A stretch of DNA of 20,914 nucleotides. It comes from a virus. This document shows, one piece after another, positions 3,642 through 20,914 of this stretch. The stretch lies in IMG/VR virus record IMGVR_UViG_3300031963_001103, positions 1-20,914 of that record; one strand, given 5' to 3'. A program made the translations under genes and the position numbers. Every line of letters begins with the position of its first letter. The first letter of the stretch is position 1. Under the pieces are notes generated by a model, which was not told the DNA's origin, did not search any database, and worked only from the letters and a program-made list of their open reading frames with translations.

Positions 3642-4064
3642 TTAGGCAATACGAGAGAACACGTATGCCGTTGCGCTCGCAAATGTGATGCGGAAGCAAG
3701 CAATACCTGTCACGCCAGATGGGACTGTCAACAAGCCAGCGCCAGCGCCAGAACCTGCGGCAGCGGCAGCAGACAAGATACCGTTTGTAGCAACAGCGAT
3801 AGTCACAGTGTTAGCGCCTGCGGTGTTATCCACCCACAAGTCCAAAGACGTGCCACGCGAAGCACCCAGAGCAGCGCCAAGCAGTGTGCCGGTTGGCAAC
3901 GTAATGGTCGTAGCCAGTGCGGAAGTCGAAGTGATGTAGCCGTCAGCAACTTGAGCCGCTGTAGCAGTGGCTGTTGCGTTGATTGCGTTGAAAGAGGTGG
4001 GTTGGTGGCCAACAATAAAACCGTTGAGGGATCGTACTGGGCCGGAGAAGGTGGTCAAAGACAT
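3642..4064 (-). CDS. Ala/Thr-rich virion protein
   Basis: 140 aa starting MSLTTFSGPVRSLNGFIVGH, with AGGA ahead of ATG 4064. The rest is Ala, Thr, Gly and Val rich with almost no charge (ITLPTGTLLGAALGASRG, LWVDNTAGANTVTIAVATN), typical of beta-sandwich head-decoration or fibre-like proteins. No catalytic motif, no signal peptide. It is the first gene after the capsid terminator and probably has its own promoter in the 4065-4170 gap, though I cannot point to convincing -35/-10 boxes there. Function is inferred from composition and position only. Confidence 0.65.
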   Translation of the reverse strand: MSLTTFSGPVRSLNGFIVGHQPTSFNAINATATATAAQVADGYITSTSALATTITLPTGTLLGAALGASRGTSLDLWVDNTAGANTVTIAVATNGILSAAAAAGSGAGAGLLTVPSGVTGIACFRITFASATAYVFSRIA

Positions 4065-4131
4065 GATGAATCCTCACATGCGAGTTAAGGTGCCCTGTCT
4101 GCATGTCGTCGGCCCGGAGCCGTCAGGAACA

Positions 4132-4145
4132 CCGGAAAAGTCCGG
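4132..4145. other. Small hairpin between capsid and next virion gene
   Basis: CCGGA (4132-4136), loop AAAG, TCCGG (4141-4145). It lies in the 149-base gap between the capsid stop and the next minus-strand gene and is not followed by a U tract on either strand. It could shape the leader of the gene ending at 3642; significance is low. Confidence 0.35.
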
Positions 4146-4170
4146 GAGTTGGGGCAATATACACCAAAAG

Positions 4171-4195
4171 AAAAAGGGGCACAAGGCCCCTTTTT
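4171..4195 (-). terminator. Bidirectional rho-independent terminator after major capsid gene
   Basis: A perfect 10-bp stem: AAAAAGGGGC (4171-4180), five-base loop, GCCCCTTTTT (4186-4195). It starts 18 bases beyond the capsid stop codon on the minus strand and would give a U run on either strand. It probably separates very high capsid expression from the genes downstream. Confidence 0.88.
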
Positions 4196-4213
4196 CAGTC
4201 ATACACCGAAGTA

Positions 4214-5146
4214 TTAGTTGGAGCCAGAGCTGCCAAAAATACCCAGCGCGTCGGACCAGCCAAAGCTGTAACGCTCACGGGCCTTGTAACGGACGTTGCC
4301 GGTGTCGAAGTCGCCGTCCATGGAGTTGGACAGAGGAGTACGGATGAAATGCTTCAAACCGTTAGGCACGTCTGTGGTCAGGAACCAAGCGTTGTTGTCA
4401 GTCAAGAAGTTGTTGACGGTGTAGCCTTCTGCCACAGAACCGTTGTTCTTGATCGCGTTGATGTCGTTGTCAGCAGTGCCAACGCGGAGGTTGGTTTCCA
4501 ACAGACGAGTAGCAACGAATTGCAGCGATGGAGGAACAATCATCTTCTTAGGCTTAGCAGCAATCAGCAGACCACGTTCATCAGTCCACTGAGCGATCTG
4601 AATAACGGCGGCTTCCAAAGAAGTCTCGTTCAGGTCAGCTTGGGTAGATGGAGTGTTGGCGTTGGTGCCGCCAGAGATCAACGGGTGGTTGACCAAAGTG
4701 CTGCTGCTGTTGTAGCCAAACAACGAAACACCGTCACCGCCCAAGTAACCACCGTTGAAACCGTTGTTCAAAACGGATGCGGCTTTAACTTGCTTGGTGT
4801 AAGCCATGGCGCGGGCCAAAGACTTGGTGTAACGAGCGGACAAGCTGTCGTACAAGTTATCTTCCACAGCTTCTTCAGTGATGGAGAAGCCCAACGCAAT
4901 GGTTTCGTGGGTGTAACGGGTAGACCATGCTTCTTGAGCGTTGTCATAAGCGATGGCTGCGCCTTCGTTCTTGACGGGTGCTGCGGAGAAGCCGGACAGC
5001 TTGGTTTCTTCTTCAAAACTACGCTCCGAAGTTTCGGTTTCGTAGATTTCTTTGTGTTGCTCGCCGTAACGTGCATATTCCAGACCGAACAAAGCGTTCA
5101 AGCCGGGGAGCAGTTCTTTAAGCAGTTGTGCGCGTGAAATTGCCAT
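4214..5146 (-). CDS. Major capsid protein (HK97-fold type)
   Basis: 310 aa starting MAISRAQLLKELLPGLNALF. The series ETETSERSFEEETKLSGFSA, NEGAAIAYDNAQEAWSTRYT, ALGFSITEEAVEDNLYDSLS and ARAMAYTKQVKAASVLNNGF is the signature I recognise for major capsid proteins of this freshwater phage type. A C-terminal segment with FIRTPLSNSMDGDFDTGNVR and GWSDALGIFGSSGSN closes it. The loop GVSLFGYNSSSTLVNHPLIS carries a longer Ser-rich stretch than I expect before HPL. It follows scaffold and decoration-like genes and is bounded by a strong terminator, as expected for the most highly expressed late gene. The start has GGAG about ten bases upstream. Confidence 0.92.
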   Translation of the reverse strand: MAISRAQLLKELLPGLNALFGLEYARYGEQHKEIYETETSERSFEEETKLSGFSAAPVKNEGAAIAYDNAQEAWSTRYTHETIALGFSITEEAVEDNLYDSLSARYTKSLARAMAYTKQVKAASVLNNGFNGGYLGGDGVSLFGYNSSSTLVNHPLISGGTNANTPSTQADLNETSLEAAVIQIAQWTDERGLLIAAKPKKMIVPPSLQFVATRLLETNLRVGTADNDINAIKNNGSVAEGYTVNNFLTDNNAWFLTTDVPNGLKHFIRTPLSNSMDGDFDTGNVRYKARERYSFGWSDALGIFGSSGSN

Positions 5147-5159
5147 GGTAATTTACTCC

Positions 5160-5756
5160 TTAAACACCAGTGGTGTTGTTGTATTGGTGGGCGTTGATTT
5201 TCACCAACAACTCGCAGTAAACACCGGGAGCAGTTGCAGTTTGCTCAACAACGTCGATAACGCGCAATGGGATGGTTGCAGTTGTACCAGCACCGGTCAA
5301 TGTCACAGCAAAAGCTGAGTTGCCAGTGGTAGTAGAACCAGCGTTCAACACCAAAGCCACGTTAGAACCGACATCAGCGCGGCTCGCGGTGCCCATAGTT
5401 GTACCAGAGGTAACAACGGCCACTTTGAACAGAGCTTGTTGATCGTCCACAACGTACGCGTAAGCTGGGTTAGCAGTAGTGGATGCCAAGGCAGGGATGT
5501 ACTGGCCCTGAACGGTTTGACCGTTAGAGTTCACGTACTGACCACCCATGCAAACACCAACAATAGTGCCAGCGTTAGTAGAGGTTGATTTAATCAAAAA
5601 CCCGGTGCTGTCGATTTGAACGGTGTCGCCATCAAAGATAGCGGTACCGAAGCCAGCAGCTACGGGAATTTGGCGAATTGCACCAGCATAGGGCTTGCCA
5701 TCAAGCGAATTGATGGGAACAAGGCCATAAGGTGCCGAAACGGTAGGAAATGCCAT
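5160..5756 (-). CDS. Head decoration-like protein
   Basis: 198 aa starting MAFPTVSAPYGLVPINSLDG, with GGAG ahead of ATG 5756. The sequence is rich in Ala, Gly, Thr and Val and low in charge (AGFGTAIFDGDTVQIDSTGF, GQYIPALASTTANPAYAYVV), with a predicted all-beta body and VIDVVEQTATAPGVYCELLV near the end. The place directly upstream of the major capsid gene and the composition fit a capsid-decorating or stabilising protein. No protease or nuclease motif. I know similar proteins only as hypothetical/structural in this phage type. Confidence 0.72.
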   Translation of the reverse strand: MAFPTVSAPYGLVPINSLDGKPYAGAIRQIPVAAGFGTAIFDGDTVQIDSTGFLIKSTSTNAGTIVGVCMGGQYVNSNGQTVQGQYIPALASTTANPAYAYVVDDQQALFKVAVVTSGTTMGTASRADVGSNVALVLNAGSTTTGNSAFAVTLTGAGTTATIPLRVIDVVEQTATAPGVYCELLVKINAHQYNNTTGV

Positions 5757-5771
5757 TTATGACTCCAAAAT

Positions 5772-6242
5772 TTAAGAACCAGAACCGAAAGTAACCTTCG
5801 ATTTCTTGTCCGAGAACAAGGGCATTCGAGGATCACTCTCACGAAGGAAATTGTTGTCCACGGATTCCATTTGAGACTTGTTCTGGTTAGCGTAGTACGC
5901 TGCCCGTTGACCCAAGAACTCCGACGGAATACGACAGAGCAACAAACCGCCCACTTCTACGTTGCCTTTAAAGCGACCTTCAGTGGTAGCGTGCATCATG
6001 AGCTCAGGATATTCCTCTGCTTTACAGGGTTCGTATCCTTCGCGTAGCTTAGAAGAGATATTGCTGGGGTCAGCGTTACCCAATGTGCTTGTCCGAATCC
6101 AGCGATGACTCCAGCCGGGGCGTTTGTCAGGGCTTGGCAAGGTCTCGGGAGGACGCCACGCTTGGGGACGTTGGAACGCCACCTCACGAGAATCCAGTTC
6201 ACGAGCCATACGATTTTGCGATTTGGTCTGTGCCTCAGTCAT
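5772..6242 (-). CDS. Conserved phage protein between scaffold and decoration genes
   Basis: 156 aa starting MTEAQTKSQNRMARELDSRE. The reading frame stays open to 6302, but ATG 6242 lies one base after the scaffold-like gene stop, and AGAGGTGAATG ahead provides a ribosome site, so I use it. It is hydrophilic with many Arg and Pro at the N-terminus (AWRPPETLPSPDKRPGWSHR), then EYPELMMHATTEGRFKGNV and LLLCRIPSEFLGQRAAYY, and an extended C-terminus KKSKVTFGSGS. No motif I can assign. Location between scaffold and head genes suggests a head assembly or completion role. Confidence 0.65.
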   Translation of the reverse strand: MTEAQTKSQNRMARELDSREVAFQRPQAWRPPETLPSPDKRPGWSHRWIRTSTLGNADPSNISSKLREGYEPCKAEEYPELMMHATTEGRFKGNVEVGGLLLCRIPSEFLGQRAAYYANQNKSQMESVDNNFLRESDPRMPLFSDKKSKVTFGSGS

Positions 6243-6243
6243 T

Positions 6244-7245
6244 TCATTCACCTCTATTAAGCATAGCAACCTGTTTGGCGTAAAGTTCCAAAGGAACCCC
6301 AAGTAGGCGAGCGATCGCTGCTTCGGATGCCTTTAGTCGCATACGACTAGGCGGAGTGCTGCGTGAAGCCGGAGCTACAACGGCAGCAGGTTTTGTTGCA
6401 CGGCGCGGAGGTTCGTCCTCGTAAGCCGGTTCTGACCTCTTTCGTGGAGGCGGGTCATCATCTTCCTCATCGCTCCGTTCACTTTCAAAGTGCTCGGGAA
6501 AACGCTTGCGCATAGTGCGGTCGATAGTTTTGAAATACTCGTCACTACCAACGTATTCAGAACCATACTCGCGCTGCAACTTCTTGTCAAGGCCCATTGC
6601 AGCCATGGTCATTTCGTCGTCTTTACCAAACCATTCGCTGTTTGTTTCCATCCAGCGTTTTGTGCGGCGATCCAGCGGAGTAGCTTCTTGTTTGGCGGGC
6701 TGGAACTCCCGCTCTTCTACTTCGATTGGGCGCATGGTGGTGGCACGATCAAGCTTCAAAGTGGCTTGTGCAACCTCTGCTTGCGCGTCTACCAATGCGT
6801 CGGAATCGCCCGAGTCATAGGCTTCCTTGAACCGGCGCTTGGCTGCTTGCAGCTCAGTCTCGGCGGCGGACTTAGAAGTCTCAATGTAGGCTTTGCTGCC
6901 CGTAGACAACTGCTGCTGGAGCTTTTTGTTCTCCTCGAAGACCTGACGGGCAAATGTTTCAGCGGCCTCGCGCTCGCGCAGGGCTTCTTCTTTGGCACGT
7001 CGCTCGTCGTGGTAGCCACGAGTGAACTTCTTAATGCGAGCCTGAACTTTCTCGTCATACGAGGCAAGTTCGTCGTCGGTGGGGTCTTCCACCGGCTCTT
7101 TCATGGGCTTGCGGCCACGGTCGGCTGCAGGTGTGTCGTCTTCGATCTCGACTTCGAAAGCATCGTCCGCAGCGGCTTTCGCAGCTTTGGCTTCCTTCTC
7201 GTCGGGAAATTCAAAGTCTTCGCCTTTGAAATCTGGCAATGGCAT
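6244..7245 (-). CDS. Acidic coiled-coil scaffold-like protein
   Basis: 333 aa. The N-terminal 60 residues are strongly acidic (FPDEKEAKAAKAAADDAF, EVEIEDDTPAADRGR). A long charged coiled-coil region follows at roughly residues 60-175 (RRAKEEALREREAAETFARQ, AETELQAAKRRFKEAYDSGD), then a globular-looking segment (TKRWMETNSEWFGKDDEMTM) and a Pro/Glu/Arg-rich tail with a terminal helix IARLLGVPLELYAKQVAMLN. Composition, size and place between portal and capsid genes fit a capsid scaffold whose C-terminal helix binds the coat protein. AGGAG precedes ATG 7245. No protease domain seen, so maturation protease, if any, is elsewhere. Confidence 0.7.
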   Translation of the reverse strand: MPLPDFKGEDFEFPDEKEAKAAKAAADDAFEVEIEDDTPAADRGRKPMKEPVEDPTDDELASYDEKVQARIKKFTRGYHDERRAKEEALREREAAETFARQVFEENKKLQQQLSTGSKAYIETSKSAAETELQAAKRRFKEAYDSGDSDALVDAQAEVAQATLKLDRATTMRPIEVEEREFQPAKQEATPLDRRTKRWMETNSEWFGKDDEMTMAAMGLDKKLQREYGSEYVGSDEYFKTIDRTMRKRFPEHFESERSDEEDDDPPPRKRSEPAYEDEPPRRATKPAAVVAPASRSTPPSRMRLKASEAAIARLLGVPLELYAKQVAMLNRGE

Positions 7246-13238: not shown

Positions 13239-13267
13239 GAACAAACCGACACGGTGTCGGATTGTTC
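13239..13267 (+). promoter_or_regulatory. 29-bp palindromic element, copy 1 (leader of 13307 gene)
   Basis: Left half GAACAAACCGACA, spacer CGG, right half TGTCGGATTGTTC. As DNA it is a near-perfect palindrome; as RNA it makes CCGACA/TGTCGG and GAACAA/TTGTTC stems with one A/A mismatch, and GCCCGC (13224-13229) with GCGGGC (13269-13274) can extend the stem outward. It lies 39 bases before the ATG. This is the most symmetric of six copies in the window. Confidence 0.85.
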
Positions 13268-13306: not shown

Positions 13307-13972
13307 ATGAGCAAAGCTATCGTTGCGGCACAAACCGCATTGCCCGGTGTCGAAGCTGTCGTTGACCTGTATGACGGTGCTGAAATCGGTATGTCGATGA
13401 TCGAAACCATCGAGCAACTGGGTCGTGAATACTGGTCACACACTGACACTATCGAGCGGGCTACCCGTTCGCTGTCACAGTGCGACACTGCGCTGTTTGA
13501 TCTGGTCAACGGCAAGCCTTACGTTGAGTTTATGACAGTTCGTAAGTATTACGTTACGGGCTGTCGTGACAAGGGCGCACCCACTGATGAAGCGGCTTCC
13601 AAAGTCTGGGAGCGTTCAATCAATCGCATCATGTCGTCATGCGGCTTTGAGCGTCCTAAGTCCGAGAGCGAAGCGGCTAAGCGCATGGCGGCTAAGCGGG
13701 CTGAGCAAGCGGCTAAGTTCGCTGACAAGTCTGACGGCGAGTTGATCGAACAACGTGCGTCCCTGCTGTCTCGCGGTGATTCCAAGTCCGTCAAAGCGGC
13801 CATGGAAATCGTCAAAGAAATCGAGCGGCGTGAGAAGCCACTGATTGATGCGGCTGAGACTGCCCGCAAAGCCTTGCTGGACAAGCTGGTTAAGCGTGCC
13901 AAAGAGCTGGCCAAAGCTGGCACTGATGATGCCGATCACAAGCTGACAGCGGCTTTGCTGGCGCTCAGCTAA
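13307..13972 (+). CDS. Helical protein of unknown function, first rightward gene
   Basis: 221 aa from ATG 13307, preceded by TTGGAG at eight bases. It begins MSKAIVAAQTALPGVEAVVD and has an N-terminal domain with MIETIEQLGREYWSHTDTIE, CDTALFDLVNGKPYVEFMTV and YVTGCRDKGAPTDEAASKVW, then from about residue 125 a long Lys/Ala/Glu-rich helix (AAKRMAAKRAEQAAKFADKS, RREKPLIDAAETARKALLDK). The C-terminal half is probably coiled coil or DNA/RNA-contacting. It is monocistronic: the palindrome-bearing leader is upstream and a terminator follows six bases after the stop. I do not recognise the family. High expression is likely given leader, SD and terminator. Confidence 0.75.
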   Translation: MSKAIVAAQTALPGVEAVVDLYDGAEIGMSMIETIEQLGREYWSHTDTIERATRSLSQCDTALFDLVNGKPYVEFMTVRKYYVTGCRDKGAPTDEAASKVWERSINRIMSSCGFERPKSESEAAKRMAAKRAEQAAKFADKSDGELIEQRASLLSRGDSKSVKAAMEIVKEIERREKPLIDAAETARKALLDKLVKRAKELAKAGTDDADHKLTAALLALS

Positions 13973-13977
13973 TCCAT

Positions 13978-14002
13978 GGGGCTTCGGCCCCTTCTTTCTT
14001 TT
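13978..14002 (+). terminator. Rho-independent terminator after 13307 gene
   Basis: GGGGC (13978-13982), UUCG tetraloop, GCCCC (13987-13991), followed by TTCTTTCTTTT. A UUCG loop closed by C-G is especially stable. It starts six bases after the TAA. Confidence 0.85.
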
Positions 14003-14140
14003 GGAGCGTCCAATGTGACATTCTGTCGGCTTTAAGACCAGCCGTTAAAAAGTCTACGCCCTTTCGACCCAGCGGCGGACACTAACGCTGGGTTACCTTT
14101 CGGCCCTCTTCGCTTCGGCGTTGAGGGCCGTTTTTTTTTT
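14003..14140 (+). ncRNA. Candidate structured RNA ending in a terminator
   Basis: Between two terminators and with no ORF. Hairpins in order: GACA/TGTC (14017-14027), CGGCT (14027-14031) with AGCCG (14040-14044), ACCCAGCG (14067-14074) with CGCTGGGT (14086-14093), then the terminator stem CGGCCCTC (14101-14108) / GAGGGCCG (14123-14130) with ten T. GGAG followed by an ATG immediately stopped (ATGTGA, 14013-14018) stands at its 5' end. The chain of perfect stems suggests a small RNA or the debris of a leader; no promoter is visible, so it may be processed from 13307 read-through. Confidence 0.45.
14101..14140 (+). terminator. Strong rho-independent terminator
   Basis: Eight-base-pair perfect stem CGGCCCTC / GAGGGCCG with a 14-base loop that includes TTCG, followed by an uninterrupted run of ten T (14131-14140). 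It backs up the terminator at 13978 or ends an independent short RNA. Confidence 0.88.
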
Positions 14141-14186
14141 GGCCCGCGCCGCCCGCTTGGCTTCGGCTTGGCTGGCGGCGCGGGCC
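14141..14186. repeat. 13-bp GC-rich inverted repeat
   Basis: Perfect arms GGCCCGCGCCGCC (14141-14153) and GGCGGCGCGGGCC (14174-14186) around a 20-base centre with TTCGG. It directly abuts the T tract of the preceding terminator. It has no U tract of its own on the plus strand and an A tract on the minus strand, so it is not a second standard terminator. It might protect an RNA end, block transcription coming from either side, or be a protein-binding site. Confidence 0.6.
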
Positions 14187-14198
14187 GCTTGATAGTAG

Positions 14199-14270
14199 TT
14201 ATCGAGGAGGATCGGTGTAGGCCATGTGGCGAGGATCGGTGTAGCCCGCATCGGTGGAGCTCTGGGTCAT
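14199..14270 (-). CDS. Possible 23-aa micropeptide with TDP repeats
   Basis: Minus-strand ATG 14270 preceded by AGGA at a fair distance gives MTQSSTDAGYTDPRHMAYTD then PPR and stop. The frame is open without stop back to 14414. It is the only frame downstream of the minus-strand promoter-plus-palindrome module at 14336-14414, which argues for it; the very short length and the fact that its repeats may be DNA-level repeats argue against. TDP/YTDP units come directly from the GGATCGGTGTAG-type repeats described separately. Confidence 0.25.
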   Translation of the reverse strand: MTQSSTDAGYTDPRHMAYTDPPR

Positions 14271-14315
14271 CGCTATCCTATGCGGGCGAATAGGATCTTC
14301 GTAGGATCGGTGGAG
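14208..14315. repeat. Four-copy short repeat (AGGATCGGTGTAG family)
   Basis: Copies AGGATCGGTGTAG at 14208-14220 and 14232-14244, GCATCGGTGGAG at 14248-14259 and AGGATCGGTGGAG at 14303-14315. First-copy spacing is 24 bases, the others irregular. Between copies 3 and 4 is a 7-bp inverted repeat ATCCTAT (14275-14281) / ATAGGAT (14290-14296). The array could be iterons for an initiator protein, operators, or the coding repeats of a micropeptide read on the minus strand. Confidence 0.6.
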
Positions 14316-14335
14316 CCTCGCCCGCCAAGCGGGCT

Positions 14336-14364
14336 GAACATTCCGACAGGCTGTCGTTTTGTAC
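14336..14364 (-). promoter_or_regulatory. 29-bp palindromic element, copy 2 (minus orientation)
   Basis: Read on the minus strand: left half GTACAAAACGACA, spacer GCC, right half TGTCGGAATGTTC. With copy 3 (15758) it shares the GTACAAA start and the GCC spacer and differs at only two positions. It follows, on the minus strand, a promoter-like sequence that also matches the one before copy 3. It is the only copy on the minus strand and lies 66 bases ahead of the possible micropeptide start. Confidence 0.8.
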
Positions 14365-14373
14365 AGTTTTGTC

Positions 14374-14394
14374 AATAATAAATGATGATGTTCA
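14374..14394. repeat. ATGATGATGTTCA repeat, copy a
   Basis: AATAATAAATGATGATGTTC plus a final A; its 21 bases are identical to copy b at 14726-14746, and an inverted copy c lies at 14855-14872. On the minus strand it overlaps the -10 zone of the candidate promoter at 14385-14414, so it could serve as an operator as well as a replication repeat. Confidence 0.75.
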
Positions 14395-14414
14395 CAAAAA
14401 CTGGACATTGTCAA
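14385..14414 (-). promoter_or_regulatory. Candidate minus-strand promoter, diverged duplicate of the 15695 promoter
   Basis: On the minus strand TTGACA (14414-14409) followed by ATGTCCAGTTTTTGTG, which matches the -35 and spacer of the plus-strand promoter at 15695 with one mismatch over 22 bases. The -10 differs: the best box is CATCAT at 18-base spacing (4/6), within the GAACATCATCATTT repeat. It may be a weak or regulated promoter. Confidence 0.5.
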
Positions 14415-14504
14415 CGGGGGGTCAGGGTCGCGGATTTGGGGGGCACAGGGGCCTCGCCCGCCTCGTACTGTGCGTCCATACAGTGCAATAACGTATAGTT
14501 ACCC

Positions 14505-14520
14505 GATTAACTATCATAAC
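14505..14520. repeat. TTAACTATCATAAC repeat, copy 1
   Basis: GATTAACTATCATAAC; a second copy, GGTTAACTATCATAAC, is at 14621-14636, 116 bases on in the same direction. A related sequence is the inverse (GATATAGTTAATAC) near 13193, before the 13307 gene. Such repeats in a gene-free region suggest binding sites for a regulator or initiator. Confidence 0.55.
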
Positions 14521-14620
14521 CCCCTGCGGGCGAAGCGAAGAATCACGGTTTCATGCGGGTTCCGGCACAGAGTATTACTTTATTTGATCAATAGCCATTT
14601 GTTCAGTACTACATTTTTCC

Positions 14621-14636
14621 GGTTAACTATCATAAC
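14621..14636. repeat. TTAACTATCATAAC repeat, copy 2
   Basis: GGTTAACTATCATAAC, 15 of 16 bases the same as copy 1 at 14505-14520. See copy 1. Confidence 0.55.
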
Positions 14637-14676
14637 TCACGCTTCTATATCAAACGACACGCCCTCCATGCACCGC

Positions 14677-14698
14677 TAAGTCGTTGATTTTATTGGAC
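14677..14698. repeat. 22-bp direct repeat, copy 1
   Basis: TAAGTCGTTGATTTTATTGG then AC. A second copy at 14887-14908 differs at three positions (C for G, C for T, A for G). Each copy is followed by a pyrimidine-rich run (TCTCCTCTCTTTA / ATTTTTCTCTTG) and then AT-rich DNA, so the duplicated unit is longer, around 50 bases, and ends in promoter-like sequence. Confidence 0.6.
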
Positions 14699-14725
14699 TC
14701 TCCTCTCTTTATTTTATATAAGATA

Positions 14726-14746
14726 AATAATAAATGATGATGTTCA
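14726..14746. repeat. ATGATGATGTTCA repeat, copy b (left arm of inverted pair)
   Basis: Identical over 21 bases to copy a. With copy c (14855-14872, opposite orientation) it makes an 18-bp inverted pair around a 108-base spacer with C-rich tracts (CCACCCCCCACCCCC, 14791-14805). A cruciform or a looped protein-DNA complex is possible. Confidence 0.75.
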
Positions 14747-14854
14747 TATTTTGACAGACAGAGAACAAAGCACCGAGAAATCCCTTTTGCCACCCCCCAC
14801 CCCCTGCGCGGGCATCTCCCCCTTGCCCACCCCTTTTCTCTATGTCTGAACTCG

Positions 14855-14872
14855 TGAACATCATCATTTATT
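14855..14872. repeat. ATGATGATGTTCA repeat, copy c (inverted)
   Basis: TGAACATCATCATTTATT, the inverse of copies a and b over 18 bases. Similarity with the minus strand of copy a extends further: ATGTCY before it and TTGA-CAAACT after it also match, so copies a and c are remnants of a roughly 50-bp duplicated, inverted segment. Confidence 0.75.
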
Positions 14873-14886
14873 TTTGATCAAACTCG

Positions 14887-14908
14887 TAAGTCCTTGATTT
14901 CATTGAAC
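14887..14908. repeat. 22-bp direct repeat, copy 2
   Basis: TAAGTCCTTGATTTCATTGA then AC; see copy 1 at 14677-14698. It sits just upstream of the promoter candidate at 14918, so it may be an activator or repressor site for the gene at 14975. Confidence 0.6.
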
Positions 14909-14917
14909 ATTTTTCTC

Positions 14918-14946
14918 TTGCAAAGATAAAAGATATATGGTATTGT
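14918..14946 (+). promoter_or_regulatory. Candidate sigma70 promoter of the 14975 gene
   Basis: TTGCAA (14918-14923), 17-base spacer ending TATATGG, TATTGT (14941-14946). Spacing is ideal, -35 is 4/6 and -10 is 4/6. The start site would fall near 14953 and leave a ~22-base leader with AAAGGAG before the ATG. Confidence 0.6.
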
Positions 14947-14974
14947 TCACAACCCTCAACAAAGGAGCAACACC

Positions 14975-15757: not shown

Positions 15758-15786
15758 GTACAAACCGACAGCCTGTCGGATTGTTC
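15758..15786 (+). promoter_or_regulatory. 29-bp palindromic element, copy 3 (leader of 15812 operon)
   Basis: Left half GTACAAACCGACA, spacer GCC, right half TGTCGGATTGTTC. About 30 bases after the expected transcription start and 25 before the ATG, so it is inside the leader RNA, where CCGACAG/CTGTCGG would form a firm stem. It is followed by CCTATATTGGAG, much like CCTTTATTGGAG after copy 1. Confidence 0.85.
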
Positions 15787-16024: not shown

Positions 16025-16139
16025 CCCATTCGATTTCTTCGCATCGGGCATGACCCGTGCCCAACGTGCGTGGCGCATTGCGTTGCTTATTGCGCTCGTG
16101 GTCGTGCTTGTGCTTGACATTTATTTTTGGAGACCCTGA
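16014..16139 (+). CDS. Small single-pass membrane protein
   Basis: 41 aa, ATG at 16014 with AGGA five to eight bases ahead. MKHDPFDFFASGMTRAQRAW is followed by a hydrophobic segment at residues 22-38 (IALLIALVVVLVLDIYF) and ends WRP. The charge pattern (Arg before, none after) predicts the N-terminus inside the cell. It overlaps the gene before by 11 bases and shares its last A with the next ATG (TGATG), so it is locked into the operon. Early small membrane proteins of phages often act on host membrane functions or exclusion; no specific role can be given. Confidence 0.65.
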   Translation: MKHDPFDFFASGMTRAQRAWRIALLIALVVVLVLDIYFWRP

Positions 16140-16375
16140 TGGATATCCTTTCTACAGAATACCGTGATTGCCAACTGTGCGGCGATGACGTTCACATCGA
16201 ACGTTGGCGTCTGGGCTATCACACATGCCGCGCTTGCGGCGACCAACTTGCCCGCGAGGCACGCCAGTCGTGGTGCGTCGTGCAAGAGTACGGTAAGGGG
16301 CCGTACATGCTGGTGACCCCTGCGTCTGCACCACGGACGCTCAAGGACACCAACCAGAAAAACCCCCGTTCCTGA
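16139..16375 (+). CDS. Small zinc-ribbon protein
   Basis: 78 aa from ATG 16139, preceded by TTGGAG with six bases between; a TTG at 16127 is in frame but less likely. Two Cys pairs, CQLC (residues 11-14) and CRAC (30-33) with DDVHIERWRLGYHT between, form a treble-clef or ribbon-like zinc site. The C-terminal half (SWCVVQEYGKGPYMLVTPAS) is beta-like with a basic tail. I know it as a recurrent small hypothetical protein of freshwater phages. Its stop overlaps copy 4 of the palindrome, so the element is directly between this gene and the ATPase gene. Confidence 0.75.
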   Translation: MDILSTEYRDCQLCGDDVHIERWRLGYHTCRACGDQLAREARQSWCVVQEYGKGPYMLVTPASAPRTLKDTNQKNPRS

Positions 16376-16403
16376 ACAAACCGTCAATCCTGTCGGAATG
16401 TTC
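16374..16403 (+). promoter_or_regulatory. Palindromic element, copy 4 (leader of AAA+ ATPase gene)
   Basis: Left half GAACAAACCGTCA, spacer ATCC, right half TGTCGGAATGTTC; 30 bases because the spacer is one longer. There is a T/T mismatch in the stem (CCGTCA against TGTCGG). It starts within the stop codon of the preceding gene and ends 30 bases before the ATPase ATG; no promoter is visible, so it acts inside the polycistronic transcript. Confidence 0.8.
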
Positions 16404-16433: not shown

Positions 16434-17516
16434 ATGTCTAAATCTGATTTGAATCTCTCTCGCCGTGTCAACTTCGCCGAAACGGTGGACATCTTGCTCA
16501 ACTCGGGCGAAACGGCTGTACACCTGACTGGTGAACCCGGCGTGGGCAAGACCGCTATTCAAGACGTTATCGTCGAGCGCACTGGCTATCGCAAAGTCTA
16601 CATCGATGGTCCCAACACCGATGTCGGCCAGTCTGGTATGCCCATTCCCAACCACGCCACGCGCACACTGGATTTTTATCCAGCTGAATATTACGGACTG
16701 CACACTGGCGAGCCACTGGTCATCATGATCGACGAGTGGACTAAGACCGATGACTACGTACGCAATACGTTGCACCCGCTTCTGCACGAGCGACGCCTCG
16801 GCGCATTTAATGTGCATCCCGACTCGATCGTGTTCACCACGGGCAACATGGACAAGGATGGTGTGGGTGACAGTGCCAAGGCACACACTCGCAACCGCCA
16901 GACTTGGTTGACCTACATGAAGCCCACTGCTAAAGAATGGTGTGCTTGGGCGGGCAACAACGGCGTGGCCCCCGAGGTTATCGCTTGGGTACACGAGTAT
17001 GAGCACTGCATGATGTCGTACATGGACGGCGGGCAAGACAAGAACCCGTACATCTTTAATCCCAATGATGCATCGCAGACTGCGTTCGTATCTCCACGCT
17101 CGCTGGTCAAAGCATCACACTGGGTTAACCGCAGGGGCAACCTGACTGACAACGCTTTCATCGGTTGCTTGGACGGCACGATCGGTTTCGCCGCATCGCG
17201 TGATCTTCAAGCGTTCATCGAGTTGGCTGATCAGTTGCCCACTCGTGAGGCTATCGAGAACTCACCCGAGTCGGCTCTCGTGCCCACATCACCTGCGGCT
17301 CAGTGCATCTTGATGTTCAAGGCTGTGTCTGTCGTGACCCGTGAGAACTTCGCCACTTGGATGAAGTACGTGCGGCGTATGCCCAAAGAGACACAAGCTG
17401 TATTTATCAACAGCTTGCTGGAACTCACGGCCAAGAAGGACTGGTCAATCATTCACCCATCGTTCGTGACATGGGCGCGTGAGAACCAGTACATGTTTGC
17501 TGGATTGAAAGGCTAA
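16434..17516 (+). CDS. MoxR-type AAA+ ATPase
   Basis: 360 aa from ATG 16434, with AAGGAA six bases ahead (an upstream in-frame ATG at 16398 lies in the palindrome and has no ribosome site). Walker A GEPGVGKT (33-40), Walker B LVIMIDE (95-101), sensor-1 TTGN (135-138), and Arg residues in HTRNRQ (151-156) as finger candidates. The domain layout and size match MoxR/CobS-like ATPases that partner VWA proteins; such a protein lies at 18710-19951. The pair likely remodels or loads metal/cofactor onto a target, or inhibits a host complex. Intervening small genes may be partners. It is soluble, without membrane segment. Confidence 0.88.
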   Translation: MSKSDLNLSRRVNFAETVDILLNSGETAVHLTGEPGVGKTAIQDVIVERTGYRKVYIDGPNTDVGQSGMPIPNHATRTLDFYPAEYYGLHTGEPLVIMIDEWTKTDDYVRNTLHPLLHERRLGAFNVHPDSIVFTTGNMDKDGVGDSAKAHTRNRQTWLTYMKPTAKEWCAWAGNNGVAPEVIAWVHEYEHCMMSYMDGGQDKNPYIFNPNDASQTAFVSPRSLVKASHWVNRRGNLTDNAFIGCLDGTIGFAASRDLQAFIELADQLPTREAIENSPESALVPTSPAAQCILMFKAVSVVTRENFATWMKYVRRMPKETQAVFINSLLELTAKKDWSIIHPSFVTWARENQYMFAGLKG

Positions 17517-17518
17517 TC

Positions 17519-17836
17519 ATGACCTATTTTATAGAACCGGAACAACTTGACTCGCTTCGGCGTGTCGCCTCGACCCTGCATGCGGGCACTGATGCAATGC
17601 GTGATCTCGGTCATCGCGTGTGGTACGTGGTCACAGGCGTAGCGGAGAACCAAAAACTTACCGACAAAGTGTCGGATTGTTTCGTGCAGAAACCAGCCGC
17701 TAATAAAGAATTGGCTGATCGTTTCTACACAACTGGGATGCACTTGGCTGACTGCTTGCGTCTCATGGGTAAACACGACGATTCGCGTGAGGTGGAAGTG
17801 TGGATATTAGAAACCTGTAAGGAGTATATGAAATGA
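17519..17836 (+). CDS. Unknown early protein containing palindrome copy 5 in its coding sequence
   Basis: 105 aa, ATG two bases after the ATPase stop, with AAAGG ahead. It begins MTYFIEPEQLDSLRRVASTL and appears wholly helical (TDAMRDLGHRVWYVVTGVAE, LADRFYTTGMHLADCLRLMG, EVEVWILETCKEYMK). Family not recognised. Residues around TDKVSDCF are encoded by the palindrome copy at 17660-17682, so the protein tolerates or exploits the element. The end overlaps the following ATG (ATGA), giving coupled translation. Confidence 0.68.
   Translation: MTYFIEPEQLDSLRRVASTLHAGTDAMRDLGHRVWYVVTGVAENQKLTDKVSDCFVQKPAANKELADRFYTTGMHLADCLRLMGKHDDSREVEVWILETCKEYMK
17660..17682 (+). promoter_or_regulatory. Palindromic element, copy 5 (intragenic)
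   Basis: Core CCGACA, AAG, TGTCGG and right half TGTCGGATTGTTT conserved; the outer left half (AAACTTA) is lost. It stands inside the 17519 coding sequence, in the direction of transcription, with all stem positions intact. Confidence 0.65.
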
Positions 17837-18063
17837 AAAAGCAACCTAAGTTGGGTATCCCTGTTGCGTACAAGGGATGCTGGATTGTGCCCGTGGGTGA
17901 CGGGTTTGACTGCGTTGACCGCACCACCGGTCGATGGATTCACCTGCCTGACTCAAGGCGGGCGAAGTGGAACGCCACTGTATGGACGCGGCTGTCCGAG
18001 GATTTTGGTGGCTCGACCATCAAGACATTCACAACTGAGCAGATCATGGAGGGACTGAAATGA
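17833..18063 (+). CDS. Small unknown early protein
   Basis: 76 aa beginning MKKQPKLGIPVAYKGCWIVP, with strands GDGFDCVDRTTGRWIHLPDS and a C-terminal helix TIKTFTTEQIMEGLK. It overlaps both neighbours by four bases (ATGA), so it is translated by re-initiation in the same operon. The middle resembles small beta domains but I cannot place it in a family. No membrane segment or zinc motif. Confidence 0.66.
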   Translation: MKKQPKLGIPVAYKGCWIVPVGDGFDCVDRTTGRWIHLPDSRRAKWNATVWTRLSEDFGGSTIKTFTTEQIMEGLK

Positions 18064-18401
18064 AAACACCAGAACTGACGGGCGCCGCCCTTGATTGGGC
18101 GGTGGCGAAGTGTGAGGGCGCATACAGCGTTAGCGTTGACACCGACATCGACGGAACCAAGCGGGTCAACTACGGCGGGATGTATCCTGAATGGTCAACC
18201 GACTGGGCACATGGTGGGCCGATCATTGAGCGGGAAAACATTGGCCTGTGGTCTGAGGGCTACGACTGGGAGGCCAAGATACAGACAGGCGTTGGTGAGT
18301 GGCTGGATATGTGGGATGCCTCTCCACTGATCGCCGCCATGCGGTGCTACGTGGTATCCAAGCTAGGCGATGACATTGAATTACCAGAGGAGTTGAAATG
18401 A
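18060..18401 (+). CDS. ninX: NinX-like (DUF2591) protein
   Basis: 113 aa. MKTPELTGAALDWAVAKCEG, then STDWAHGGPIIERENIGLW and a C-terminal SPLIAAMRCYVVSKLGDDIE are the hallmark of the DUF2591/NinX family of phage P22 and relatives: conserved opening L-x-G-A-x-L-D-W-A-V-A-K, the TDWxxGGPIIE box, and PLIAAMRCYV-SKLGD. The family is of about 110-120 aa, so this copy is full length. In P22-like phages NinX sits in the nin early region; function is unknown. It overlaps the genes on both sides by four bases. Confidence 0.9.
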   Translation: MKTPELTGAALDWAVAKCEGAYSVSVDTDIDGTKRVNYGGMYPEWSTDWAHGGPIIERENIGLWSEGYDWEAKIQTGVGEWLDMWDASPLIAAMRCYVVSKLGDDIELPEELK

Positions 18402-18562
18402 AAACGTATGAAGTTGAACTCAAGCGCACCAGCTACATCACTCTAACTGTGGAGGCTGATGACAGGGACGATGCTTTGGATAAAGCATGGGCCGAGTGTG
18501 GTGACCGCACTGACAGCGATGACGCTGTGTGGGATGTCGAATCAATCGAGGAGATGAAATGA
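18398..18562 (+). CDS. 54-aa beta-alpha-beta protein, DpnD/PcfM-like pattern
   Basis: 54 aa, ATG 18398 overlapping the NinX stop, with GAGGAG ahead. MKTYEVELKRTSYITLTVEA, DDRDDALDKAWAECGDRT and WDVESIEEMK describe two strands, a helix rich in Asp/Ala and a final strand with an E-rich end. Similar short proteins with 'xxYxVxxxxTxxxxVEVEAxSxEEAxxKA' are seen in phages and plasmids (DpnD/PcfM-like), which is a tentative match. Its final codons provide the GAGGAG ribosome site for the next gene. Confidence 0.62.
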   Translation: MKTYEVELKRTSYITLTVEADDRDDALDKAWAECGDRTDSDDAVWDVESIEEMK

Positions 18563-18723
18563 CACCAGAGAAAGAAGAACTCATGGTTGAGATGCTCAAC
18601 TCGTTGATCGAGTTGATGAACAAGGCGCGTCTTGAGAAGGACGCAACACTACTTGACTCATACGCACGACTCGTGCATGAGACATGGACACACCTAAAGG
18701 AAGCACAAGATGATTTTAAGTAA
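18559..18723 (+). CDS. 54-aa helical early protein
   Basis: 54 aa from ATG 18559 (ATGA overlap with the previous stop, GAGGAG ahead); the frame is open a further 30 bases upstream but without a better site. MTPEKEELMVEMLNSLIELM, ARLEKDATLLDSYARLVHET and HLKEAQDDFK read as a helical hairpin of two amphipathic helices. Not recognised. It overlaps the start of the VWA gene by 14 bases, so the two are tightly coupled, which may mean a physical partner. Confidence 0.62.
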   Translation: MTPEKEELMVEMLNSLIELMNKARLEKDATLLDSYARLVHETWTHLKEAQDDFK

Positions 18724-19951
18724 AGCAAAGATGCCTGCTGAGCGCAGGCTTGAACTTGTTCATGTGAGCCTGATGCGTGAGAAGCGATTCGCTTTCTTCG
18801 CAGGCTTGTTCATGGTCGGTAAGACATCCATTGTCGATCTACCCATCACAGCGAGGACCAATGGTCGTGACGCTGAGTATGGTCGCGCATTCGTGGACAC
18901 ACTCAACGATCGAGAGCTTGCCTTTCTTGTGTTGCACGAGAACATGCACAAGTGCTACCGCCACCTGACTACGTGGCGCAGTCTCTTTGAGAAGGATAGC
19001 CGCAAGGCGAATCATGCGTGTGACTACGTGATCAACATCCAGTTGGTTGATATGGACCGTGAAGAGAAGTTCATTGCCATGCCACGCGATAAGAAGACGC
19101 ACAAGCCTATCGGTCTGGTTGATACCAAGTACCGTGGTATGGACGCCAAGCAAGTGTGGGACATCCTCCGCGATGAAGAATGCGGTGGCGGTGGTGGCAA
19201 CGAACAATCCGACGGTGGGTCGGAAAGTTCTGGCGGTGGTGATGCTGGTCTTGACGAGCACGATTGGGAAGGCGCTCGGCAACTGACAGCTGAGGAACAG
19301 AAAGAGTTGGCCCAAGACATCGAGGGTGCTCTTCGCCAAGGCGGTATCTATGCGGGCAAGGTGGGCGGTGACATGCTTCGCTCTGTCAAAGAGATGCTTG
19401 AGCCAAAGGTGGACTGGCGTGAGGTGTTGCGCCGATTCGTGCGTACTTCACTCAAGGATCGGGACAGCCCAAGCTGGCGTCGCGCACACAAACGCTATCT
19501 CTGGCAAGACATCATATTGCCGAGCATCGTGGGTAAGCGCATGAAGCATCTCGCTGTGGGCATCGACACATCTGGTTCTATCCAAGGCGATCTGCTTGCA
19601 TCGTTCATGGGCGAACTCAACAAGGCTGTGACAACTGTGAATCCTGATCGTGTTGACATCATGTATTGGGACACTGTCGTGGCTGGGCATGAGGTGTACA
19701 AGGGTAGCAACCAGAACATTACGACTGCGACCAAACCCAAAGGTGGCGGTGGTACTGATCCTGACTGCGTACCTACGTTCATGGGTGAGAAGAAGATCGC
19801 GCCCGATGCACTCATCATGCTGACGGACGGGTACATGAGTAGCGACGCCAGCAGATGGTCCGGTGTAGGCTGTCCCATCCTGTGGTGTGTGATTGGTAAC
19901 ACCGATCTCAAGATACCGAAAGGTCAGGTGGTGCGTGTCGAACGTGATTGA
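18710..19951 (+). CDS. DUF2201-type protein: HExxH metallopeptidase-like domain plus VWA domain
   Basis: 413 aa from ATG 18710, with AAAGGAA eight bases ahead. N-terminal domain: LVLHENMHKCYRHLT holds HExxH (His76, Glu77, His80), the zinc motif of peptidase-like proteins; third ligand not certain (His91-120 region, NHACDYVIN). A Gly/Ser linker (about 158-180) follows. C-terminal VWA: LAVGIDTSGSI with MIDAS DxSGS (286-290), Thr349/Asp350 in GGGGTDPDC, and IMLTDGYM (Asp373). This matches DUF2201 proteins known as VWA-like predicted metallopeptidases, usually next to a MoxR ATPase; here that is 16434-17516. They may act together on protein or metal cofactors. The linker is encoded across palindrome copy 6. 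Confidence 0.9.
   Translation: MILSKAKMPAERRLELVHVSLMREKRFAFFAGLFMVGKTSIVDLPITARTNGRDAEYGRAFVDTLNDRELAFLVLHENMHKCYRHLTTWRSLFEKDSRKANHACDYVINIQLVDMDREEKFIAMPRDKKTHKPIGLVDTKYRGMDAKQVWDILRDEECGGGGGNEQSDGGSESSGGGDAGLDEHDWEGARQLTAEEQKELAQDIEGALRQGGIYAGKVGGDMLRSVKEMLEPKVDWREVLRRFVRTSLKDRDSPSWRRAHKRYLWQDIILPSIVGKRMKHLAVGIDTSGSIQGDLLASFMGELNKAVTTVNPDRVDIMYWDTVVAGHEVYKGSNQNITTATKPKGGGGTDPDCVPTFMGEKKIAPDALIMLTDGYMSSDASRWSGVGCPILWCVIGNTDLKIPKGQVVRVERD
19202..19230 (+). promoter_or_regulatory. Palindromic element, copy 6 (intragenic, in VWA gene linker)
   Basis: Left half GAACAATCCGACG, spacer GTG, right half GGTCGGAAAGTTC. It keeps GAAC/GTTC and TCCGAC/GTCGGA as a palindrome although inner and outer bases differ from the consensus. 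It lies in the sequence for the Gly/Ser linker, where protein constraint is weakest. Confidence 0.55.
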
Positions 19952-20330
19952 TACATCACCGATCATCAACGTGATCGACTGGGTGAACACAGTTTGTACG
20001 GTGGACCACACAAACTTCATGGTACGTGTGGACCCGAGAGGTATGGATGCTGTGTTAACGGTTGATCCCAAGGCTCGGTTCATCGAACGGTTCACGCACC
20101 ACTACGGTATGACAGCCACGCTCATGCGTGCTCGTACCGGAGGCTGGACTGAGAAGCTGAACACGGTGACTGGGTATGGGAAGTTCTACGACTACTGCGC
20201 GCGCAACGCGAAGTACGAAACGGCGTCGATCCTGCAAGGGGTGACGAATGGATTTTTGTTTGAGGTGGACTGTCACAAAGACAGCCCCCTCGTCGGTTGG
20301 TTCCTCGTATTAGGAGTTAAAAATGGATGA
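19944..20330 (+). CDS. Unknown early protein with probable GTG start
   Basis: 128 aa if the GTG at 19944 is used, overlapping the VWA gene stop by eight bases; another GTG at 19935 and a TTG at 19893 are in frame, and the only ribosome-like site (AGGTGG, 19926) fits 19935 or 19944 poorly. It runs VIDTSPIINVIDWVNTVCTV, DHTNFMVRVDPRGMDAVLTV, FIERFTHHYGMTATLMRARTG, GKFYDYCARNAKYETASIL and ends GWFLVLGVKNG: a mixed alpha/beta protein, no catalytic motif I can name. The start remains uncertain; the frame itself is well supported by length and composition. Confidence 0.62.
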   Translation: MIDTSPIINVIDWVNTVCTVDHTNFMVRVDPRGMDAVLTVDPKARFIERFTHHYGMTATLMRARTGGWTEKLNTVTGYGKFYDYCARNAKYETASILQGVTNGFLFEVDCHKDSPLVGWFLVLGVKNG

Positions 20331-20559
20331 TCATGTGATTCTGATTATTGGTGACAACAAGTTCTACTTGTCCACCCACGAAGCGTTCGACATCGCTCGC
20401 GCCCTCAACGGTGCGACGCGCATCAAGTCTGAATGGGTCAAAGGTTCCAGCTTGTTGACGTACGCCAAGCCCGAAGTGGGTGTGGCCTCTGTCACGCCAA
20501 TGCCCGGCCCACTTCAGTTGGAGTTGGAGACTAACACCAACGCGAGGGACACAAAATGA
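20323..20559 (+). CDS. Small unknown early protein
   Basis: 78 aa beginning MDDHVILIIGDNKFYLSTHE, with strand-rich N-terminus, helix AFDIARALNGATRIKSEW and a Pro-rich extended C-terminus (ASVTPMPGPLQLELETNTNA). TAGGAG lies ahead of ATG 20323. The pattern 'IxIGDxxFYLSxxEAxxIAxxLN' recurs in small phage proteins I have seen, with unknown role. It overlaps the upstream stop by eight bases and the next start by four. Confidence 0.68.
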   Translation: MDDHVILIIGDNKFYLSTHEAFDIARALNGATRIKSEWVKGSSLLTYAKPEVGVASVTPMPGPLQLELETNTNARDTK

Positions 20560-20723
20560 AAAACGTCGCGACGGGGTTCAATGTAACCCTTAACAAAGAA
20601 ACCTACGACCTGCTGGTTCAGGTCAAGGGTGCGCTGACGAACAAACTCGGGTTCGAGCCAACGAATGGTCAAGTCATTCGTCATTTGATTTCAATCTATT
20701 TTGGAGAAGCATATGGCCTATAA
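20556..20723 (+). CDS. Ribbon-helix-helix small DNA-binding regulator
   Basis: 55 aa from ATG 20556 (ATGA overlap). MKNVATGFNVTLNKETYDLL holds a short strand (FNVTL) followed by helix 1 to about residue 31 and a loop GFEPTNGQ; helix 2 VIRHLISIYFGEA follows. Strand-helix-helix at about 50 residues with T-N/S before helix 2 is the Arc/MetJ ribbon-helix-helix layout: a dimer puts its paired strand in the major groove and recognises palindromic DNA. It may be an autoregulator, and a candidate binder of the palindromes in this window, which is a guess. It overlaps the next gene by 11 bases. Confidence 0.65.
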   Translation: MKNVATGFNVTLNKETYDLLVQVKGALTNKLGFEPTNGQVIRHLISIYFGEAYGL

Positions 20724-20914
20724 CACATACGGTGCGCCGTGGATTTCATCCTATGCGGAAGCAGTTAAGCGGTACGAAGACACCAAACCAATTCGTGGGC
20801 AGACTGTGCGACCACTCGGGCATCGCAAGTATCACATGTGGGCAAGCATTGATAAGCAACAGGACACCATCGTGCTGATATACGAGCGGTTCCCCTGCGT
20901 GGTCTGGCGTGAGG
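20713..20914 (+). CDS. Unknown early protein, cut by right edge
   Basis: 67 codons visible from ATG 20713, which has TTGGAG eight bases ahead; the frame is open to the window end. Begins MAYNTYGAPWISSYAEAVKR, then YEDTKPIRGQTVRPLGHRKY and MWASIDKQQDTIVLIYERF. No motif recognised in the part seen; the last stretch reads as beta strands. It starts inside the preceding gene's last codons, so the operon goes on past the window. Confidence 0.65.
   Translation, partial: MAYNTYGAPWISSYAEAVKRYEDTKPIRGQTVRPLGHRKYHMWASIDKQQDTIVLIYERFPCVVWRE

What the first reader, a model, noticed from the sequence alone, without database searches (positions are those of the whole stretch)
16434..19951. Phage-borne MoxR ATPase and HExxH/VWA pair in an early operon with a cargo of small genes
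MoxR AAA+ and VWA proteins are known pairs (RavA-ViaA, CobS-CobT, MoxR-CoxE types) that remodel or load cofactor into targets; DUF2201 proteins add a peptidase-like HExxH domain. Here the two genes are split by five small coupled genes (unknown 105 aa, 76 aa, NinX-like, two of 54 aa), and palindrome copies sit in the ATPase leader and in the VWA gene. The set could be a host takeover or anti-defence machine with the small proteins as adaptors.
Basis: partly seen in the sequence, partly recalled or inferred. Interest (0 to 1): 0.65.

Follow-up and report, generated by a model that had tools for sequence, protein, structure and literature searches.

The report
Phage ATPase–protease module shared with plasmids
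A group of phages carries an early gene module in which a ring-type ATPase works with a protein that has both a protease-like zinc site and a protein-gripping domain; the pair is already known from other phages, but relatives show that a third, overlooked protein (DUF3150) belongs with it and that conjugative plasmids carry the same trio.

Summary
A MoxR/midasin-type AAA+ ATPase (16434-17516) and a DUF2201 protein (18710-19951) with HExxHxxxxH and a complete MIDAS flank five small coupled genes. The ATPase-VWA pair is real: 42/42 close relatives, 47/47 wider viral loci with enough flank, and every named phage opened. The five small genes are not a conserved part: 0 to 8 unrelated genes fill that slot. 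The pair itself is known (N4 gp24/gp25; Iyer 2021, jumbo phages). New here: a third gene, DUF3150, just beyond the window end, is kept in 36/36 relatives and is as conserved as the ATPase. It accompanies the pair in 27/30 wider viral loci; in 32/32 plasmids holding both, it lies 10-109 bp from the VWA gene. I read it as an MGE-borne MoxR-DUF3150-VWA/metallopeptidase remodelling machine; its target is unknown. Also new: the palindromes are six copies of a 29-bp dyad (expected about zero). Each relative has its own dyad sequence at the same positions, including inside the VWA linker, which suggests dispersed operators; the first early gene (13307-13972) is the best candidate reader.

The parts
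16434..17516 (+). MoxR/midasin-type AAA+ ATPase, 360 aa
   Evidence: AAA_5, PHROG 1297; best PDB relative Midasin E 2e-33; Walker A, D100, N138, R155, R222 invariant across phages and plasmids
16530..16553 (+). Walker A, GEPGVGKT (residues 33-40)
   Evidence: sequence, invariant P35 G36 G38 K39
16719..16736 (+). Walker B, VIMIDE (residues 96-101)
   Evidence: sequence, D100 invariant
17519..17836 (+). slot gene 1, 105 aa; family found in 23 relatives' slots, often next to VWA
17833..18063 (+). slot gene 2, 76 aa; family in 9 loci
18060..18401 (+). slot gene 3, NinX-like, 113 aa; in 4 loci only
   Evidence: PF10765 6e-20
18398..18562 (+). slot gene 4, 54 aa; family in 8 loci
18559..18723 (+). 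slot gene 5, 54 aa; family in 2 loci
18710..19951 (+). VWA protein with N-terminal zincin-like metallopeptidase domain (DUF2201_N + DUF2201), 413 aa; the 'HNH endonuclease' label of PHROG 1314 is not supported by its domains
   Evidence: AlphaFold2 model pLDDT 79, VWA part matches MDN1/Rea1 MIDAS and NorQD
18935..18964 (+). HENMHKCYRH, HExxHxxxxH metal site (residues 76-85)
   Evidence: H76 E77 H80 H85 invariant in 14 divergent and 64 mostly viral homologues; same pattern in N4, G, RaK2, CR3, SCTP-2, Munch, Callisto, pVa5, TM3_14A
19565..19579 (+). MIDAS DTSGS (residues 286-290); further ligands T349, D373
16139..16375 (+). 78 aa CxxC..CxxC zinc-ribbon-like gene just upstream of the ATPase, kept in nearly all relatives
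20323..20559 (+). 78 aa gene downstream of VWA, kept in nearly all relatives
20556..20723 (+). 55 aa gene downstream of VWA, kept in all relatives long enough
20713..20914 (+). start of the fast-evolving ~346 aa gene (cut by the window end); in relatives the next gene is DUF3150
16374..16403 (+). dyad in the ATPase leader (GAACAAACCGTCA-4-TGTCGGAATGTTC)
   Evidence: counterpart in ~40 relatives with genome-specific sequence
19202..19230 (+). dyad copy inside the VWA gene, in the Gly-rich linker between the two domains
   Evidence: at +492 to +622 of the VWA gene in 32/34 relatives
17654..17682 (+). dyad copy in slot gene 1
15758..15786 (+). dyad copy upstream of the 70 aa gene
14336..14364 (+). 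dyad copy in the largely non-coding stretch
13239..13267 (+). best dyad copy (26/26), in the leader of the first early gene
13307..13972 (+). 221 aa first early gene, candidate dyad-binding regulator
   Evidence: its divergence tracks dyad divergence best: partial r 0.70 given ATPase distance, next best 0.45; alignment

Best explanation
The two genes are the ATPase and the substrate-gripping/metallopeptidase subunits of a three-part, ATP-driven protein-remodelling machine carried by mobile elements; the third part is the DUF3150 protein encoded a few genes downstream. Shown: homology, motifs, linkage and co-conservation. Inferred: the ATPase forms a MoxR-type ring; the VWA MIDAS holds an acidic residue of the client or of DUF3150, as in Midasin; ATP hydrolysis pulls on the client; the HExxHxxxxH site, never lost, then cuts it or at least binds metal. 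DUF3150, largely helical and evolving as slowly as the ATPase, is a constant partner (scaffold or client-presenting subunit). The machine acts early inside the infected or recipient cell, on a host or element protein of DNA metabolism or defence, not mainly on the virion. The small genes between ATPase and VWA are variable accessory cargo. The operon is studded with dyad operators read by a phage regulator.
For: Domains and motifs. ATPase profile best matches Midasin in PDB, E 2e-33; VWA model matches MDN1/Rea1 MIDAS and a NorQD complex. Pair always linked. DUF3150 kept in 36/36 relatives reaching that far, 71-79% identical, mean distance 0.23, equal to the ATPase (0.23) against 0.65 for its two neighbours; Pfam DUF3150 hits in 27 of 68 members; in 27/30 wider viral loci with 4 kb on both sides; ATPase, DUF3150 and VWA clustered in three plasmids opened, in cyanophage MinM2 and in MAG contig L066; DUF3150 and VWA 10-109 bp apart in 32/32 plasmids with both. 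Plasmids have no virion, and the window group has the genes on the replication strand, against a virion-only role. Slot variability.
Against: No biochemistry, interaction or expression data; client unknown. N4, CRP-7, pVa5, phage G, RaK2, TM3_14A, CR3, SCTP-2, Munch and Callisto have the pair without a detectable DUF3150 in the stretches searched, as do L169, L170, L171 and L185, so DUF3150 is not universal. In RaK2 and Munch the pair sits next to virion genes, which favours virion assembly there. The DUF3150 gene of the window's own phage was not seen (window ends first). The N-terminal peptidase domain had no significant structural match of its own.
Confidence: 0.55

Rival explanations
1. 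Virion assembly and processing chaperone: MoxR-VWA remodels structural proteins and the zincin domain cleaves them during maturation, as Iyer et al. 2021 proposed for group 2.2 jumbo phages and by analogy with the Acidianus two-tailed virus.
For: Published proposal for the same domain architecture (PMC7824862). In RaK2 and Munch the pair lies beside tail, head-completion and other virion genes.
Against: In the window group the genes are on the replication strand, away from the structural block; N4 gp24/gp25 are middle, not late, genes (PMC4193335); homologous trios lie on plasmids, some conjugative, that make no virion.
Confidence: 0.2
2. Host-takeover or anti-defence machine in the strict sense: it disassembles or cuts a specific host defence or transcription complex.
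For: Early location, sharing between phages and conjugative plasmids that both enter a hostile cell, hypervariable small genes in the slot. Kaur et al. 2020 describe MoxR-vWA ternary systems in biological conflict (PMC7159879).
Against: No PADLOC family matched; no target; the ATPase and DUF3150 are slowly evolving, unlike typical arms-race effectors. Cargo genes have almost no informative family matches.
Confidence: 0.2
3. The seven genes act as one unit, with the five small proteins as adaptors.
For: Tight translational coupling; the 105-aa family recurs in 23 loci, often just before the VWA gene.
Against: Two relatives have no gene in the slot (4-nt gap) and no family is shared by all.
Confidence: 0.05

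Closest known systems
Escherichia phage N4 gp24/gp25 (Schitoviridae core genes; PHROG 1297/1314)
   Same: Homologous ATPase and VWA/metallopeptidase, same order and strand, HExxHxxxxH and MIDAS kept (PMC4193335, PMC7650795)
   Different: N4 has no gene between the two and no detectable DUF3150 in the regions searched; only 18-27% identity to the window proteins
Jumbo-phage MoxR plus metallopeptidase-vWA pair (Iyer et al. 2021, PMC7824862)
   Same: Same domain architecture and pairing
   Different: Proposed for virion assembly and, in RaK2 and Munch, located by virion genes; here on the early strand with DUF3150
MoxR-vWA ternary conflict systems (Kaur et al. 2020, PMC7159879)
   Same: MoxR plus vWA plus a third conserved linked component
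   Different: Third component is DUF3150, not VMAP, iSTAND, FtsH or beta-propeller; no polymorphic effector domain seen; carried by phages and plasmids
Midasin/Rea1, RavA-ViaA, NorQ-NorD, CobS-CobT
   Same: AAA+ of the MoxR clade working with a MIDAS-type VWA domain
   Different: Their clients are cellular complexes and, to my knowledge, their VWA proteins lack the zincin domain; no ViaA/CoxE or CobT Pfam match here
phiC31 conserved inverted repeats, L5 stoperators, P1 c1 operators (own knowledge), for the dyads
   Same: Many copies of one recognition sequence dispersed over the early region
   Different: Here each phage has its own dyad sequence at conserved positions, one copy lies inside a coding linker, and no integrase was found in the relative scanned

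Membership tests
MoxR-vWA chaperone/co-chaperone pair | MoxR-clade AAA+ ATPase with Walker A, Walker B, sensor 1 Asn and arginine fingers | tested here: met
   invariants; Midasin best PDB match
MoxR-vWA chaperone/co-chaperone pair | vWA partner with intact MIDAS (DxSxS, T, D) | tested here: met
MoxR-vWA chaperone/co-chaperone pair | genes linked | tested here: met
MoxR-vWA chaperone/co-chaperone pair | physical complex and ATP-driven remodelling | not testable with these tools
   needs biochemistry
N4 gp24/gp25 family (PHROG 1297/1314) | sequence homology of both proteins | tested here: met
   PHROG E 5e-42 and 4e-78
Schitoviridae (carrier phage) | giant virion RNA polymerase and N4-type RNAPs | tested here: inconclusive
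   none recognised in relative G009 in partial scans; largest protein 2331 aa
Group 2.2 jumbo-phage MoxR/MPTase-vWA (Iyer 2021) | metallopeptidase domain fused N-terminal to vWA | tested here: met
   DUF2201_N + DUF2201
Group 2.2 jumbo-phage MoxR/MPTase-vWA (Iyer 2021) | role in virion assembly | not testable with these tools
   genomic context argues against it here
Kaur 2020 MoxR-vWA ternary systems | third component VMAP, iSTAND, FtsH or beta-propeller | tested here: not met
   third component is DUF3150; so not filed as a member
DUF3150 (PF11348), third gene in relatives | Pfam match | tested here: met
   27 of 68 members at E up to 1e-3, best 5e-8; the first member just under the gathering score (24.5 against 24.9 bits)
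RavA-ViaA / CobS-CobT | ViaA/CoxE or CobT family match | tested here: not met
   only DUF2201 models matched in Pfam, nothing in NCBIfam
HNH endonuclease (database label) | HNH domain | tested here: not met
   no HNH match in Pfam; metallopeptidase and VWA-like models cover residues 26-410
phiC31 CIR / L5 stoperator-type immunity | dispersed operators in the early region | tested here: met
   dispersed dyads shown; that they act as operators is inferred
phiC31 CIR / L5 stoperator-type immunity | lysogeny functions (integrase, repressor) | tested here: inconclusive
   no integrase in Pfam scans of most G009 proteins; record may be incomplete

The most novel reading that the evidence does not exclude
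A further type of MoxR-vWA ternary system, defined by DUF3150 and a zincin-vWA subunit and carried by invaders (phages and conjugative plasmids): an ATP-powered protease that disarms or reprograms the cell early after DNA entry. In this phage group it is controlled by dispersed operators whose sequence differs between phages like immunity types.
Probability: 0.3. Interest if true: 0.8.

Novelty: new variant of a known kind. Interest (0 to 1): 0.55.

Why it matters
N4 gp24/gp25 are core genes of a large phage family, and I found no report of their function. Finding a third, equally conserved partner and the same trio on conjugative plasmids narrows the options: for this branch the job is unlikely to be virion building alone, and plasmids offer a tractable place to test it. 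The zinc site and MIDAS are invariant, so point mutants are a clean test. The dyad arrays, with a candidate reader, make a second testable question: a phage-specific regulatory code kept in place while its letters change.

Tried and rejected
Seven-gene unit: rejected by slot variability. HNH endonuclease label of PHROG 1314 and RefSeq: no HNH domain match. Known defence-system family: none in PADLOC. Cargo function: of 49 slot proteins only NinX had a strong Pfam match, and PHROG hits had no function. DUF3150 fold: no PDB match; the weak structural hit in Mycobacterium phage Dylan, probably gp94 next to an AAA-ATPase, has no sequence similarity and its ATPase is not MoxR-like. Dyads as plain transcription terminators: in-gene copies and genome-specific sequence make this unlikely. 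In one search the seed chosen for L010 failed; one search shows it does have sites, one in VWA. The genome-contig scan used too narrow patterns and gave only three loci; the distant DUF3150 alignment could not be used for a scan. Papers: nothing on DUF3150; the dCas13d phage screen paper does not mention N4-like phages or MoxR in its main text. No expression data were available.
Full report
What is in the window. The record is a 20.9-kb virus fragment from IMG/VR. Structural genes run leftwards up to about 12.7 kb, and early-type genes run rightwards from 13.3 kb. The seven genes named in the finding are all present and tightly coupled. The ATPase has the MoxR/midasin signature: its profile finds Midasin as best solved relative with E 2e-33, and Walker A, Walker B Asp, sensor Asn and two arginines are invariant across phages and plasmids. 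The second protein is DUF2201_N (putative metallopeptidase) plus DUF2201 (VWA-like). In 64 homologues H76, E77, H80, H85, D105, N109 and all MIDAS residues are invariant, and nine more distant phage copies keep HExxHxxxxH and DxSxS. So neither site is decaying.

Is the pair real? Forty-six close relatives were found. All 42 loci that reach far enough have the ATPase followed by the VWA gene on the same strand (this count includes the window's own locus L001). Among 80 wider viral VWA loci, at 42-69% identity and chosen as the best of at least 566, the ATPase is upstream in all 47 with 4 kb of upstream sequence. N4, CRP-7, pVa5, Bacillus phage G, RaK2, Rhizobium TM3_14A, Cronobacter CR3, SCTP-2, Munch, Callisto and cyanophage MinM2 all carry both.

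Are the small genes part of it? No. The distance between the two genes runs from 4 to 1696 nt. Two relatives have no gene there, and others have up to eight. Thirty-two slot proteins have no relative in the set, and the most frequent family is in 23 loci. The same kind of slot, with different genes, is seen in CRP-7, pVa5, phage G and TM3_14A. This is a place where accessory genes come and go.

A third conserved gene. Beyond the window, in relatives, follow a 346-aa gene, a 290-aa gene and a 288-aa gene. The flanking two are mostly only 22-38% identical, but the 290-aa protein is 71-79% identical to the query in 36 of 36 relatives that extend so far. Its mean distance (0.23) equals that of the ATPase. 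It is DUF3150. Plasmids of Burkholderiales and of Rhodovastum carry ATPase, DUF3150 and VWA-like genes together; in 32 of 32 plasmid records with both of the latter, the gap is 10-109 bp. Of three MAG contigs, L066 shows all three genes, L067 all three with the ATPase cut by the contig end, and L065 only VWA (cut) and DUF3150. In 30 wider viral loci with 4 kb on both sides 27 have DUF3150. It was not detected in N4, CRP-7, pVa5, phage G or the other phages opened, nor in four of the wider loci. The model of DUF3150 is confident (pLDDT 87), largely helical and without a PDB match. No paper in the library mentions DUF3150.

How it most likely works. In characterised systems (Midasin, RavA-ViaA and others, summarised in PMC7159879) a MoxR-type ring and a MIDAS-bearing VWA domain remodel a client complex. 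Here the VWA subunit also carries an invariant zinc-protease signature, so remodelling is probably linked to cleavage. DUF3150 would be a constant subunit. The location on the replication strand, N4's middle-gene timing (PMC4193335) and the presence on conjugative plasmids argue that, in this branch, the work is done inside the cell early on. The virion-assembly proposal of Iyer et al. (PMC7824862) fits the jumbo phages RaK2 and Munch, where the pair lies among virion genes. The family may have been recruited for both. All steps beyond homology, linkage and motif conservation are inference.

The palindromes. Six 29/30-bp dyads score at least 24 of 26 in the window, all between 13.2 and 19.2 kb, where simulation gives 0.13 per window at 20. 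In about 40 relatives each genome has its own dyad: half-sites match their own genome's consensus at 87% and other genomes' at 67%. The positions are nevertheless the same: ATPase leader, at or after the ATPase stop, before DUF3150, after the 288-aa gene, and inside the VWA linker in 32 of 34, with one of the two exceptions an artefact of seed choice. In two long genomes the sites are confined to about 10-11 kb of the early region. Median spacing is 1.2 kb. Dispersed dyads also occur in several more distant trio phages. This points to sequence-specific dispersed operators. The first early gene (221 aa, with the best dyad in its leader) is the best candidate reader: its divergence follows dyad divergence with partial r 0.70, next best 0.45. 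That is a correlation over related genomes, not proof.

Verdict. The new parts are the DUF3150 partner, the link to plasmids, and the dyad arrays.

Noticed in passing
window 13239, 14336, 15758, 16374, 17654, 19202; relatives L002-L047: Dispersed 29-bp dyads with genome-specific sequence at conserved positions, one inside the VWA gene; candidate operators.
   Followed up: yes
window 13307-13972: 221-aa first early gene whose divergence tracks the dyad sequence (partial r 0.70); no convincing family match in PHROGs or PDB.
   Followed up: partly
window 13973-14974: About 1 kb largely non-coding stretch with repeats (AATAATAAATGATGATGTTCA at 14374 and 14726, inverted copy near 14854; 44-nt inverted repeat 14722/14836); could be an origin or control region.
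   Followed up: no
PHROG 1314 and RefSeq records of N4-like phages: The VWA/metallopeptidase family is labelled 'HNH endonuclease', which its domains do not support.
   Followed up: partly
L061 (Ca. Manganitrophus plasmid) 3839-6861: DUF3150 next to a different AAA ATPase with DUF1257 and DUF2997 and no VWA gene: another context for DUF3150.
   Followed up: no
window 16139-16375: Small CxxC..CxxC protein directly upstream of the ATPase, kept in nearly all relatives; role unknown.
   Followed up: no
L195 (Mycobacterium phage Dylan) 27933-30525: Weak structural resemblance of a 275-aa viral protein (probably gp94) to DUF3150, next to an AAA-ATPase gene; no sequence similarity.
   Followed up: partly
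NZ_CP110465.1 (Acinetobacter baumannii, 75 kb): A plasmid record with a VWA-like homologue, of phage-like size; possibly a phage-plasmid.
   Followed up: no
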